Origin: Prauserella isguenensis
GTDB taxonomy: Bacteria; Actinomycetota; Actinomycetes; Mycobacteriales; Pseudonocardiaceae
Reading direction: 5' to 3'
Length of the DNA: 64,000 nucleotides
Assembly: GCF_014191605.1 (NCBI RefSeq)
Contig: NZ_JACHWU010000001.1
Location: forward strand, 992,001-1,056,000
Below are positions 49,387-57,356 of this stretch, one piece after another. Both the position numbers and the translations under genes were made by a program. The notes under the pieces were generated by a model. That model had not been told where the DNA came from. It searched no databases and was given only the letters and a program-made list of their open reading frames with translations. Within the stretch, counting starts at the first letter, position 1; each line of letters opens with the position of its first letter.

Positions 49387-50361
49387 TCACGCCTGTTCGA
49401 GGAGGCGCTCCGCGGCGCTCGCGTCGGTGACGAGGGTGTCGACCATGCCGGAACGCAGCACGGCGGCGATGGCGTCGGCCTTCTCGGCGCCTCCGCTGAG
49501 GGCGATGACTTCGGGGACGCGTTTGAGCTCGGGCACGCTGACGCCGAACACGTGGTGGCCGAGGTCGCCGGTGAGCTCGTTGCCGTCGGCGTCGAAGAGT
49601 CGGGCCGCCACCTCGGCAACGGCCCCTCTGCGGGCCAGTTCCTCACGTTGCTGCTCTCCGAGCACGCTGTAGACGGTCGACTGTCCGCTGCGCCACGCGC
49701 CGATGCTGACGACCGCCGTGGTGATCCGCGCGAACCGTTCGAAGGCGTCGGCGATGCCCGGTTGTTGCCGCAGCGTCTGCGCGGTGCGCCGGTCGGGCAG
49801 GACCAGCGGGCCGAAGATGGGGAAGGCTTCGCCGCCGGACACCTGTGCCACCCTGCGGACCGTTTCGACCGAGCGGTCCGCCGAGTGTTCCCGGGTGTCG
49901 ATCCGCGACGAGACGCCGCACAGCTGCACCACGGGGCAGCGGGCGAGTCGGCGCAGCGAGTCCGTCATCGCGTTGACGGTCCGCGCCCAGACGACGCCGA
50001 GTACGTCGTCCTCCGTGACCAGTTCGGTCAGTAGTTCGGCGGCCATCGCGCCGAGCTGCTTGCGCAATTCGATCTCGGTGCGTTCCGCTCGTTCGAGCAC
50101 CAGCACGCGGCGGAGTCCGTAGGCGGTGGCGACCTCGTCGGACAGCGTCGGCTCGAGTGGCGCCGGCACGTCGAACTCCACCCTGATGAGGCCGTTGTCC
50201 CGTGCCTGATCGAGGATTCTGGCCACCTTGAACCGGCTGATGCCGAATTCCTCGGCGATCTCCAACTTCGACGCGCCCTGGACGTAGAACCGCCTGCCGA
50301 TCGACGTGGCGAGCAACAACTCGGCCGGTCCAGGCTGCCAACGGCGCCCCTTCCTGCTCAT
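49387..50361 (-). CDS. SorC-family sugar-binding transcriptional regulator
   Basis: 324 residues. Helix-turn-helix near 30-60 (GASKLEIAEEFGISRFKVAR, ILDQARDNGLIRVEF), then the SorC effector domain (about 70-320) with DVLGVVWARTVNAM and DLGHHVFGVSVPELKRVPEV. Binds phosphorylated sugars as effectors. Divergent from the polyol operon, whose genes it probably controls. Its start codon lies inside a GCTCATATGAGC palindrome, so autoregulation is likely. Confidence 0.88.
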   Translation of the reverse strand: MSRKGRRWQPGPAELLLATSIGRRFYVQGASKLEIAEEFGISRFKVARILDQARDNGLIRVEFDVPAPLEPTLSDEVATAYGLRRVLVLERAERTEIELRKQLGAMAAELLTELVTEDDVLGVVWARTVNAMTDSLRRLARCPVVQLCGVSSRIDTREHSADRSVETVRRVAQVSGGEAFPIFGPLVLPDRRTAQTLRQQPGIADAFERFARITTAVVSIGAWRSGQSTVYSVLGEQQREELARRGAVAEVAARLFDADGNELTGDLGHHVFGVSVPELKRVPEVIALSGGAEKADAIAAVLRSGMVDTLVTDASAAERLLEQA

Positions 50362-50368
50362 ATGAGCA
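50355..50368. promoter_or_regulatory. SorC-operator candidate 1 (overlaps regulator start)
   Basis: 14-bp perfect palindrome TGCTCATATGAGCA covering the regulator's ATG (50359-50361). Shares GCTCA-NN-TGAGC with candidate 2. Confidence 0.55.
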
Positions 50369-50461
50369 ACTTACCACGAACTTCCCCTGGAAGCGTTGAC
50401 TCGGACTCACGCAAAGGCATTCAATACTCTCGTAAGTCAACGTTCAGGCAGTGGGCTCGTG

Positions 50462-50475
50462 CGCTCAAGTGAGCG
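50462..50475. promoter_or_regulatory. SorC-operator candidate 2
   Basis: CGCTCA-AG-TGAGCG, with perfect 6-bp arms and the same GCTCA/TGAGC halves as candidate 1, about 107 bp away. Located between the regulator and the dehydrogenase gene (start 50621). A TTGACT hexamer at 50396-50401, also forming GTTGACT/AGTCAAC arms with 50437-50444, may be a -35 element. Confidence 0.55.
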
Positions 50476-50620
50476 TATTTGGCCCGGCTGGTCCTGATCG
50501 GCCGCTCCGATGCCGAAGCGGGTGCCACCGAGGTGACGACCCGGCCCGGACGCGGCGCGGTCCGGTCCGGGCCGGGTCGGGCGCGCACTGCCCGTGTGAG
50601 TATCAGGAGGGTGGCGCCTC

Positions 50621-51625
50621 ATGCGGGCCGCGATCATCGATACGCCGGGCTCGGTACGCGTCGGCGAGGTCCCCGACCCCAAACCGGCCGACCACGACGT
50701 CGTCGTCGAGGTGGGTGCGTGCGGCATCTGCGGTACCGACCTGCACATCGCCGACGGGCACTTCCCCCCGACGCCGTATCCCATCGTCCCCGGTCACGAA
50801 TTCGCGGGCCGGATCGTCGAGGTCGGGGCCGACGCCCCGGGCGGGTTCGCCGTCGGCGACCGTGTGGCCGTCGACCCGTCGCTGTTCTGTGGACACTGCG
50901 GTCCGTGCCGCGCGGGCCACGGCAACCTGTGCGCCAACTGGGGCGCGACCGGCGACACCGTCGACGGCGCGTTCGCCGAGTACGTCGCCGTTCCCGCAGC
51001 CACGTGCTACCGCATGCCCGACGAGATGACGTACCAGCAGGGCGCGCTCGTCGAACCGGTGTCGTGCGCGGTCCACGGCGTGCGGCGCATCGGCGTCGAA
51101 GCCGGTGAGCGGTTCCTCGTGCTCGGTGCGGGCACGATGGGCCTGATCATGCAGCAGTTGCTGCAGCGCGCGGGCGCCGTCGTCACGATGGTCGACCGCA
51201 ACACCGAACGCCTCGGCAGGCCACGTGAACTCGGGGCCGCGGCCGTGGTGTCCGACGTCGCCGAGCTCGACGACGAGAAGTTCGACGCCGCGGTGGACTG
51301 CACCGGCGCCGTGCCCGCGATCGAGGCCGCGTTCGACTCGCTGCGCCGCGGCGGGAGGCTCCTCGTGTTCGGGGTCGCGCCCGAGGAGGCGCGCGTGTCG
51401 CTGTCGCCGTTCCGTATCTACAACGACGAGATCACGATCGTCGGCTCCATGGCGGTGCTGCACAGCTACGGCGCGGCGCTGAACCTCGTGGCCACCGGCG
51501 CGATCGACACGGCGTCGCTGCTCACCGAGAGCCTGCCGTTGGAGCGGTTCACGGACGCGATGCAGCTCATGCGCGGTGGGCGGGGCCTCAAGACCCAGGT
51601 GCTGCCGGGTGTCGCCGATGCGTAG
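50621..51625 (+). CDS. Zinc-dependent medium-chain polyol/alcohol dehydrogenase
   Basis: 334-residue MDR enzyme. N-terminal catalytic domain: catalytic zinc Cys in GACGICGTDLHIADGHF, GHE-F proton relay in VPGHEFAGRI, structural zinc Cys4 in FCGHCGPCRAGHGNLC. NAD-binding Rossmann fold near 165: RFLVLGAGTMGLIMQQLLQR. Likely oxidises a pentitol or hexitol to its ketose in the first step of the operon; with xylulokinase downstream, D-xylulose is the probable product (D-arabitol or xylitol as substrate). AGGAGGG precedes ATG 50621. Confidence 0.9.
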   Translation: MRAAIIDTPGSVRVGEVPDPKPADHDVVVEVGACGICGTDLHIADGHFPPTPYPIVPGHEFAGRIVEVGADAPGGFAVGDRVAVDPSLFCGHCGPCRAGHGNLCANWGATGDTVDGAFAEYVAVPAATCYRMPDEMTYQQGALVEPVSCAVHGVRRIGVEAGERFLVLGAGTMGLIMQQLLQRAGAVVTMVDRNTERLGRPRELGAAAVVSDVAELDDEKFDAAVDCTGAVPAIEAAFDSLRRGGRLLVFGVAPEEARVSLSPFRIYNDEITIVGSMAVLHSYGAALNLVATGAIDTASLLTESLPLERFTDAMQLMRGGRGLKTQVLPGVADA

Positions 51626-55955: not shown

Positions 55956-57356
55956 GTGAACGAGTTGGTAGCCGGGGTGGACTCGTCGACACAGTCCACC
56001 AAGGTCGTCGTCTGCGAGGCCGGGAGCGGAACGGTGGTGCGGACCGGGCAGGCCGCACACCCGGACGCCACCGAGGTCGACCCCGTCGAGTGGTGGCACG
56101 CACTGCGCACCGCGGGAGACGGTCTGCTCGACGACGTCGCCGCGATCGCCGTCGCGGGGCAGCAGCACGGCATGGTCACCGTGGACGACGACGGCGACGT
56201 GGTGCGGGACGCGCTGCTGTGGAACGACGTCCGTTCCGCGGGTGCCGCCGACGCCCTCGTGGCCGAACTGGGCGGCGGCCAGGCCTGGGCGGACGCCGTC
56301 GGGTCGGTGCCGCTGGCCAGCTTCACGGTGACGAAGCTGCGGTGGCTGGCCGAACACGAACCGGACGCCGCGAAGCGGGTCGGCCGCGTGCTACTGCCGC
56401 ACGACTGGCTGACGTGGCGGCTGCTCGACCGGCGAGACGAGCCGACCACCGACCGCGGTGACGCCTCCGGGACGGGGTACTACTCGCCGATCGACGGTGC
56501 GTACCGGACGGACCTGCTGGTCAGGGCGTTCGGCAGGGAGGTCGGGCTGCCCACGGTGCTCGGGCCGGCCGATGCGGCGGGCCGCACCGCCGACGGCGTG
56601 CTCGTCGCCCCGGGAACGGGCGACAACATGGCCGCGGGCCTCGCCCTCGAACTCGCAGACGGGGACGTCGCCGTGTCGCTGGGCACGAGCGGGACGGTGT
56701 TCGGAGTGTCCGAGAAGCCGGTCGCCGACGGTTCCGGCGTGGTCGCCGGCTTCGCCGACGCCACGGGCCGGTACCTGCCACTGGCGTGCACGCTCAACGC
56801 CGCGCGGGTGCTCACGTCGACCGCGGCCATGCTCGGCACCGACCTCGAAGGCCTCGATACGCTCGCGTTGTCGGCACCGCCCGGCGCCGACGGCCTGACC
56901 CTGCTGCCCTACCTCGACGGGGAACGCACGCCCAACCTGCCCGACGCCTCCGGATCGCTCGTGGGCCTCCGTCGGGCCAACATGACGCCAGCCAACGTGG
57001 CGCGCGCCGCCGTCGAGGGCATGCTGTGCGGACTCGCCGCGGGTCTCGACGCGGTGCGCGACCACGGCGTGGCGGTGCGGCGGGTGCTGCTCACCGGCGG
57101 GGCGTCCCGGTCGGCGGCCGTGCAGGCCATCGCCCCCGGTGTGTTCGGCGTGCCCGTCGTCGTCCCGCCGGAGATGGAGCACGTCGCCGTCGGTGCGGCG
57201 CGCCAGGCCGCGTGGGCGTTGCACGGAGGTGCCGAACCGCCGAGCTGGCGCATCCACGACGACGGCGTCACCCTCACGCCCGCATCCGCCGATCTCGATG
57301 CCGGCACCCGTGTGGCCGAAGCCCATCGAACAGCGAGGCGCCACCTCCACCCCTGA
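55956..57356 (+). CDS. xylB: Xylulokinase (FGGY family)
   Basis: 466-residue sugar kinase, most likely D-xylulose to D-xylulose 5-phosphate, feeding the pentose phosphate pathway. [20 protein letters not shown] (phosphate 1), [29 protein letters not shown], and the C-terminal ATP-site blocks [14 protein letters not shown] and [20 protein letters not shown] are typical of XylB. GTG 55956 begins 86 bp after the ATPase gene. Last gene of the polyol operon; supports a pentitol pathway. Confidence 0.9.

What the first reader, a model, noticed from the sequence alone, without database searches (positions are those of the whole stretch)
50355..50475. Paired GCTCA-NN-TGAGC operators in the polyol promoter region
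Two palindromes with the same halves occur ~107 bp apart in the SorC/dehydrogenase intergenic region, one covering the regulator's own start codon. The spacing (about ten turns) suits DNA looping.
Basis: seen in the sequence. Interest (0 to 1): 0.5.

Follow-up and report, generated by a model that had tools for sequence, protein, structure and literature searches.

The report
Three-operator switch for sugar-alcohol genes
A sugar-alcohol operon in actinobacteria has two conserved sites that look like binding sites of its own regulator, one of them containing the regulator gene's start codon, and a third copy is written into the regulator's protein-coding sequence.

Summary
The two palindromes exist as described: 50356-50367 and 50463-50474, 107 bp apart (2 exact copies, 0.09 expected). 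All 137 non-redundant close loci of the SorC-family regulator (window included) carry at least two such sites; 31 of 55 more distant loci carry two, and a group of 24 carries none. The left site (op1) contains the regulator's start codon (ATG 117, GTG 20 of 137; in frame 136) and abuts a -10-like box (135 of 137), so the mRNA is probably leaderless. op1 and op2 bracket a conserved dehydrogenase promoter. Five or six inferred indels moved op1 relative to the dehydrogenase -35 box, each by about one helical turn. op1-op2 spacing is less strictly phased, so looping is plausible (SorC regulators are tetramers) but unproven. Best reading: a gal/lac-like three-operator autoregulatory switch for pentitol use. 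New variant of a known kind; no binding or expression data.

The parts
50356..50367 (.). op1: GCTCATATGAGC; operator over the regulator's predicted transcription start and start codon, about -70 from the predicted dehydrogenase start site
   Evidence: exact in 136 of 137 close loci; holds an ATG/GTG in frame with the regulator in 136 of 137
50463..50474 (.). op2: GCTCAAGTGAGC; operator in the predicted untranslated leader of the dehydrogenase operon
   Evidence: exact in 110 of 137, the other 27 with one mismatch
50087..50098 (.). op3: GCTCGTTCGAGC (minus strand GCTCGAACGAGC); intragenic operator-like site in regulator codons 88-92
   Evidence: GCTCN4GAGC in codons 80-105 of 120 of 137 ORFs against mean 9.4, maximum 17 in 200 synonymous redraws; lowest synonymous change of the Val, Leu and Arg columns tested
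49387..50361 (-). SorC/DeoR-family regulator, 324 aa
   Evidence: PF04198 187 bits; predicted fold matches full-length SorC 2w48, DeoR-DNA 8r7y and LsrR
50359..50361 (-). regulator start codon ATG, bases 7-9 of op1
   Evidence: ATG 117, GTG 20 of 137; Shine-Dalgarno-like 4-mer upstream in 5 of 137
50368..50373 (-). regulator -10-like box TAAGTT, directly upstream of op1
   Evidence: TANNNT abuts op1 in 135 of 137
50396..50401 (+). dehydrogenase -35 box TTGACT
   Evidence: TTGAC in 137 of 137
50420..50425 (+). dehydrogenase -10-like box TTCAAT (weak match to consensus), 18-bp spacer
   Evidence: final T in 137 of 137; the two A before it in 87% and 97%, GC after it in 89% and 96%
50621..51625 (+). 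zinc-dependent polyol dehydrogenase, first gene of the operon
   Evidence: PF08240, PF00107
51576..52988 (+). ABC transporter sugar-binding protein (ORF as listed; true start probably later)
   Evidence: PF01547
53023..53955 (+). ABC transporter permease 1
   Evidence: PF00528
53957..54781 (+). ABC transporter permease 2
   Evidence: PF00528
54787..55869 (+). ABC transporter ATPase, UgpC/MalK type (start assumed)
   Evidence: NF008653 454.6 bits, cut-off 432
55956..57356 (+). xylulokinase
   Evidence: TIGR01312 386.9 bits, cut-off 380.25

Best explanation
This is the control region of a pentitol-type catabolic operon run by an autoregulated SorC/DeoR-subfamily repressor with three operators. 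Without inducer (probably a phosphosugar of the pathway such as D-xylulose 5-phosphate; inferred), the tetramer sits on op1. That blocks the regulator's own promoter at its start site and start codon, and holds the dehydrogenase promoter, which lies on a fixed face of the helix relative to op1. A tetramer has two DNA-binding dimers, so its second pair can hold op2 in the dehydrogenase leader (a loop of about 104-107 bp closing that promoter) or op3 inside the regulator gene (a loop of about 250-285 bp tightening autorepression). Inducer loosens the tetramer and both directions open. Shown by comparison: the three conserved sites, the start codon in op1, op1 abutting the -10-like box, selection on op3 as DNA, and op1-promoter phasing. 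Inferred: that this protein binds them, repression rather than activation, the start sites, the inducer, and both loops.
For: Sites accompany the regulator: 137/137 close loci with two or more; 52/55 distant with at least one, against 1/55 for the reversed pattern and 0.011 hits per 340 bases elsewhere in those loci. op1 abuts TANNNT in 135/137 and holds the start codon. TTGAC in 137/137 and, after 18 bp, a TNNAATGC element lie between op1 and op2. op3: 120/137 against 9.4 by redraw; GCTC is the top of 256 arm words; synonymous steps 6, 6 and 11 at codons 88, 89, 91 are the minima of 22 Val, 30 Leu and 20 Arg columns; moved 8 nt in 26 genes. op1 to -35 is only 17/18, 27/28, 38 or 40 nt; inferred indels -9,-9,-10,-10,+11,+12, 5 events on a second tree. 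Fold: SorC/DeoR/LsrR. Family members are DNA-bridging tetramers (PMC11229326, sections read).
Against: No binding or expression data. op2-side changes (-10,-6,-5,+13,+14,+14,+15) are mostly not whole turns, against a strict op1-op2 loop. 17 of 137 genes lack an exact op3 and distant orthologs lack it (0/55 and 0/24), so it is not essential to the system. 24 orthologs have none of the palindromes. A few Ser columns change as little as the op3 codons (for example codons 42 and 128). In DeoR the full operator is 39 bp (PMC11229326), not 107. The dehydrogenase -10 is poor, which also fits activation.
Confidence: 0.72

Rival explanations
1. Independent operators without loops: op1 represses the regulator sterically, op2 acts as a downstream block in the dehydrogenase leader, op3 as a weak elongation roadblock or titration site.
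For: op2-side spacing changes are mostly off-phase; op1 sits on the predicted regulator start site; op2 is 33-37 nt after the -10-like box in 130 of 137.
Against: op1 to -35 distance is phase-locked, and DeoR half-operators alone did not bind (PMC11229326, section 21).
Confidence: 0.3
2. op1 is an activator site as well: the regulator bound at about -70 contacts RNA polymerase at the weak dehydrogenase promoter, and op2 or op3 serve repression and autoregulation.
For: op1 centre about -70, with variants about 10 bp nearer or farther, phase-locked to the -35 box; 18-bp spacer and poor -10 box. GalR at OE represses one gal promoter and activates the other (PMC4693257, passages).
Against: The primary role of SorC relatives is said often to be repression (PMC11229326, passage); no data here.
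Confidence: 0.3
3. Another DNA-binding protein uses these palindromes.
For: The same motif is conserved in a second intergenic region, beside espG- and ybaB-type genes, in Prauserella; 24 orthologs have no such site.
Against: Sites sit beside this regulator's gene in 137 of 137 close and 52 of 55 distant loci, and a related site lies inside the gene itself.
Confidence: 0.07
4. op3 reflects protein, codon or mRNA constraint, not binding.
For: Leu89 is present in 137 of 137, and some Ser columns are as conserved in codon use.
Against: Uncommon CGA at Arg91 in 93 of 132 and CTC at Leu89 in 131 of 137; site kept after an 8-nt shift in another frame in 26 genes; orthologs without it have other residues at codons 89-92.
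Confidence: 0.08

Closest known systems
E. coli gal operon, GalR operators OE (-60.5) and OI (+53.5), 113 bp apart (PMC4693257, passages)
   Same: Two operators of a sugar regulator bracket the promoter at about -70 and +36, mostly 103-107 bp apart; one lies in the transcribed region
   Different: Regulator is SorC-family, not LacI/GalR; regulator gene is adjacent and divergent; outer operator carries its start codon; third site in the regulator gene; looping not shown
E. coli lac operon, O1 with intragenic auxiliary operator O2 (recalled, no call)
   Same: An auxiliary operator lies in coding sequence a few hundred bp from the main one
   Different: Here the coding sequence is the regulator's own gene and a different protein family is involved
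B. subtilis DeoR/CggR (SorC family; PMC11229326)
   Same: Same protein family and fold; described as dimers of dimers reading two half-operators
   Different: Their operators are single 39-45 bp blocks; here 12-bp palindromes mostly 103-107 and about 250-285 bp apart
E. coli LsrR
   Same: Full-length fold match
   Different: Scores far below the LsrR equivalog cut-off; operator architecture not compared here

Membership tests
SorC/DeoR-subfamily transcriptional regulator | C-terminal PF04198 sugar-binding domain | tested here: met
   187.2 bits, cut-off 27
SorC/DeoR-subfamily transcriptional regulator | N-terminal DNA-binding domain plus sugar-binding domain, full-length fold | tested here: met
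   AlphaFold model pLDDT 88.7; Foldseek hits 2w48, 8r7y, 4go1, 4l5i over 299-327 columns, TM-score 0.62-0.75 of the query; no separate helix-turn-helix family was hit in Pfam
SorC/DeoR-subfamily transcriptional regulator | tetramer that reads two half-operators | not testable with these tools
   stated for DeoR and CggR, and tetramers for LsrR, in PMC11229326; not computed here
Named equivalogs DeoR (NF053881) and LsrR (NF011947) | score above curated cut-off | tested here: not met
   139 of 420 bits and 106 of 486 bits
Looped repression system (gal-like) | two operators bracketing the promoter | tested here: met
   TTGAC box between op1 and op2 in 137 of 137; that it is a promoter is inferred
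Looped repression system (gal-like) | operator spacing at whole helical turns | tested here: inconclusive
   6 of 12 changes of 3 bp or more are near one turn; no period preference
Looped repression system (gal-like) | demonstrated loop or spacing-dependent repression | not testable with these tools
   needs experiment
Pentitol (xylitol/D-arabitol-type) catabolic operon | polyol dehydrogenase, ABC importer and xylulokinase together | tested here: met
   the substrate itself is not testable here

The most novel reading that the evidence does not exclude
One regulator tetramer chooses between two partners for op1: op2 closes the catabolic promoter, op3 closes the regulator gene. One 12-bp word acts at once as operator, transcription start and start codon of a leaderless repressor mRNA. 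op3 was acquired inside the regulator's own coding sequence, and keeping it as DNA has dictated amino acids of the protein (V-L-E/N-R-A, where relatives without it have other residues such as V-V-D-T-P or V-V-E-S-P).
Probability: 0.3. Interest if true: 0.65.

Novelty: new variant of a known kind. Interest (0 to 1): 0.5.

Why it matters
It offers a naturally replicated test of operator architecture: 137 close loci in which spacing, phase and a coding-sequence operator have changed several times, and 55 more distant ones for comparison. It shows a likely operator written into a regulator's own reading frame, noticeable through codon choice, and suggests that scans restricted to intergenic DNA may miss such sites. 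It also gives an operator motif for a widespread polyol-type regulator of actinobacteria for which my searches found no description.

Tried and rejected
Rayleigh-type test of op1-op2 spacing on 79 non-redundant loci: R = 0.51 at 10.5 bp and 0.51-0.53 at 8.5-11.5, so it does not show phasing.

op1-op3 distances (251-284 bp) show no clear phase, judged by eye.

Regulon beyond this operon: of the 6 other exact sites in the assembly, 4 regions (L035, L037, L038, L039) align to site-bearing loci of relatives. In L037 alone I aligned the flanks and saw them diverge round an invariant motif; the other three stand in similar contexts in relatives and were not studied, so plain conservation is not separated from function. 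The second SorC-family gene of the genome has no GCTCANNTGAGC copy with at most 1 mismatch in its locus.

RNA element: one snoRNA match at E 0.83, far below its gathering score. The consensus promoter/terminator scan found nothing; its rule asks for A at position 2 of the -10 box, which TTCAAT lacks. The promoters rest on comparison, and the hexamers were placed by best fit in a script.

Literature: ten searches listed no paper that I recognised as describing this regulator or its operators; several lists were capped (for example 15 of 896, 20 of 49, 12 of 112 papers shown) and the library is open-access only. The one paper holding GCTCATATGAGC concerns, by its listing, extradiol dioxygenases. 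What I saw: PMC11229326 passages, section 21 whole, section 24 part 1 of 2; PMC4693257 passages only; the rest, listings only. The lac comparison is recalled.

Rows dropped: the 137 set (window included; best match at 55% identity or more) excludes L006 (frame-shifted ORF, left as it is) and 23 copies with identical ORF stretches. Of the listed family-search rows at 57% identity or more, one (G825, 284 bases from a contig end) was not fetched; further rows were not listed by the tool. Of the class search only the loci returned were studied, not the other listed rows. The one out-of-frame locus was not examined. Indel events are counted by parsimony and loci are related, so k of n counts are not independent observations.

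One search scanned an arbitrary stretch and told nothing.

Full report
OBSERVATION. The two palindromes are present at 50356-50367 and 50463-50474, centres 107 bp apart. They are the only exact GCTCANNTGAGC copies in the window against 0.09 expected; with two mismatches allowed the window holds fewer matches than shuffles do (21 against 34), so only the exact pair stands out. The assembly holds 8 exact places, 2 of them here, and the reversed pattern 2, so exact sites alone are not proof; conservation is the test.

SURROUNDINGS. The minus-strand gene 49387-50361 is a SorC-family regulator (PF04198). Its predicted structure (mean pLDDT 88.7) matches full-length SorC, DeoR bound to DNA, and LsrR, but it scores far below the DeoR and LsrR equivalog cut-offs. 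The plus-strand operon encodes a zinc polyol dehydrogenase, an ABC sugar importer and a xylulokinase just above its curated cut-off. That points to pentitols such as xylitol or D-arabitol oxidised to D-xylulose (inference). The nearest named relative found is Prauserella aidingensis, 98% identical in the regulator.

CONSERVATION OF THE PAIR. At 55% or more identity to the window regulator I held 137 non-redundant loci, window included, after leaving out one frame-shifted gene and 23 copies. All 137 have at least two upstream sites with at most one mismatch. The regulator-side site is exact in 136 and the dehydrogenase-side site in 110 of 137. Among 55 more distant loci (34-52% identity), 52 have at least one site and 31 two, against 1 with the reversed control pattern; a further group of 24 loci has none. 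Of 16 distant loci sampled, I could read the divergent gene by eye in 10: a transporter binding protein in 6, a dehydrogenase in 3, a permease in 1; in 6 the longest frame was not informative.

ANATOMY. On the regulator strand a TANNNT box abuts op1 in 135 of 137, and bases 7-9 of op1 are ATG in 117 and GTG in 20 of 137, in frame with the regulator in 136, with a Shine-Dalgarno-like 4-mer upstream in only 5. The same position of op2 also holds CTG, TTG, ACG and others. The regulator mRNA therefore most likely starts at the start codon, inside the operator. On the other strand TTGAC stands between op1 and op2 in all 137, followed after 18 bp by a TNNAATGC element (T 87, A 87, A 97, T 100, G 89, C 96%). 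Taking the start site 7 nt after that box (window 50432, inferred), op1 is centred near -70 and op2 near +36 in most loci. In the window the leader after op2 is 146 nt; in 34 of 46 loci op2 ends 17-22 nt before the first ATGCG-type start.

A THIRD SITE. Codons 88-92 of the regulator spell GTG CTC GAA CGA GCG, which contains GCTCGAACGAGC (window 50087-50098). In the first 46 genes the uncommon Arg codon CGA stood in 42 and CTC in 46. In all 137 the synonymous changes counted on the tree are 6 at Val88, 6 at Leu89 and 11 at Arg91, each the lowest of the columns of that residue tested (22, 30 and 20 columns; medians 21, 23, 28.5), and 14 at Ala92 (median of 33 columns 25); some Ser columns, such as codons 42 and 128, are as low. 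GCTCN4GAGC occurs in codons 80-105 of 120 of 137 genes; redrawing synonymous codons from each gene's own usage gives 9.4 on average and 17 at most in 200 draws; the word occurs once elsewhere in the 137 genes; of 256 possible 4-base arms GCTC is the commonest. In 26 of the 120 the site lies 8 nt downstream, in another reading frame, which protein or codon demands would not explain. Of the 17 without an exact site, four have one mismatch at the usual place (L061, L064, L072, L168), L179 has one mismatch there too, and most of the others appear to have lost it. Distant orthologs lack the site (0 of 55 and 0 of 24). In the 24, codons 88-92 read V-V-E-S-P in nearly all; in the 55 the commonest residues are V-V-D-T-P, with P in 23 of 55. 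In the model these residues end a strand (85-89) and begin the following loop. I read op3 as an operator gained in the close group and kept as DNA.

LOOPING. SorC proteins are described as dimers of dimers; DeoR bound its full operator but not single half-operators (PMC11229326, section 21; section 24 part 1). Two distant palindromes could thus be bridged by one tetramer. The gal operon is the nearest working model: operators at -60.5 and +53.5, 113 bp apart, best at 103, 113, 123 and 133 bp (PMC4693257 passages). Here op1-op2 spacing is 103-107 in 106 of 137 and 93-96 in 24, with seven others at 98, 99, 117-119, 121 and 128. Tree mapping gives six indels of 3 bp or more on the op1 side of the promoter, -9, -9, -10, -10, +11 and +12, and seven on the op2 side, -10, -6, -5, +13, +14, +14 and +15. 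On a second tree, with neighbouring values pooled, the op1-side events number five. If indels of 3-16 bp were equally likely, 6 of 6 would fall at 9-12 with probability 0.0006, and 5 of 5 with about 0.002 (my arithmetic). So op1 seems to keep its face relative to the dehydrogenase promoter, while op2 is freer. That favours direct action of op1-bound protein on the promoter, with looping to op2 possible but not demanded. The Rayleigh-type measure did not separate 10.5 bp from other periods.

VERDICT. The loop is a reasonable but unproven step. The main additions are the intragenic third site and the start codon fused with op1. No binding, transcript or expression data were available. The searches listed under Tried and rejected showed me no published description; they cover open-access papers only and their lists were capped.

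Noticed in passing
G000:C3:55567-55578 (L037:1968-1979); L280-L284: The same palindrome is kept, amid diverging flanks, in the intergenic region beside espG (PF14011) and YbaB-type (PF02575) genes of the window's genome and in the matching place of 4 of 5 other Prauserella genomes examined, twice in one; in the fifth (G950) it was not determined. It may be a second target of this regulator or a site of another factor. Gene families were tested in the window's genome only.
   Followed up: partly
window 50475-50620: In the window and six Prauserella-type loci the leader between op2 and the dehydrogenase start is 121-146 nt, against 17-22 nt in 34 of 46 loci; the purpose of the extra leader is unknown.
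   Followed up: no
L005 and L053, about 126 bases upstream of the regulator start: An extra one-mismatch palindrome lies 13 bp from op2, suggesting operator duplication in that species.
   Followed up: no
L116, L122 upstream regions: Orthologs with a similar DNA-binding domain lack GCTCANNTGAGC but carry GCACATATGTGC and GCTCATATGTC-like words, perhaps a drifted operator (by eye).
   Followed up: no
L136, L138, L140-L161: 24 orthologs about 51% identical have no such palindrome near the regulator; their operator is unknown.
   Followed up: partly
window 50394-50442: CGTTGACT and AGTCAACG form an 8-bp inverted repeat around the dehydrogenase promoter; also seen in L001-L004 (by eye).
   Followed up: no
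L006: The regulator ORF of this relative is cut short by a frame shift (105 aa read from the start); left as it is.
   Followed up: no
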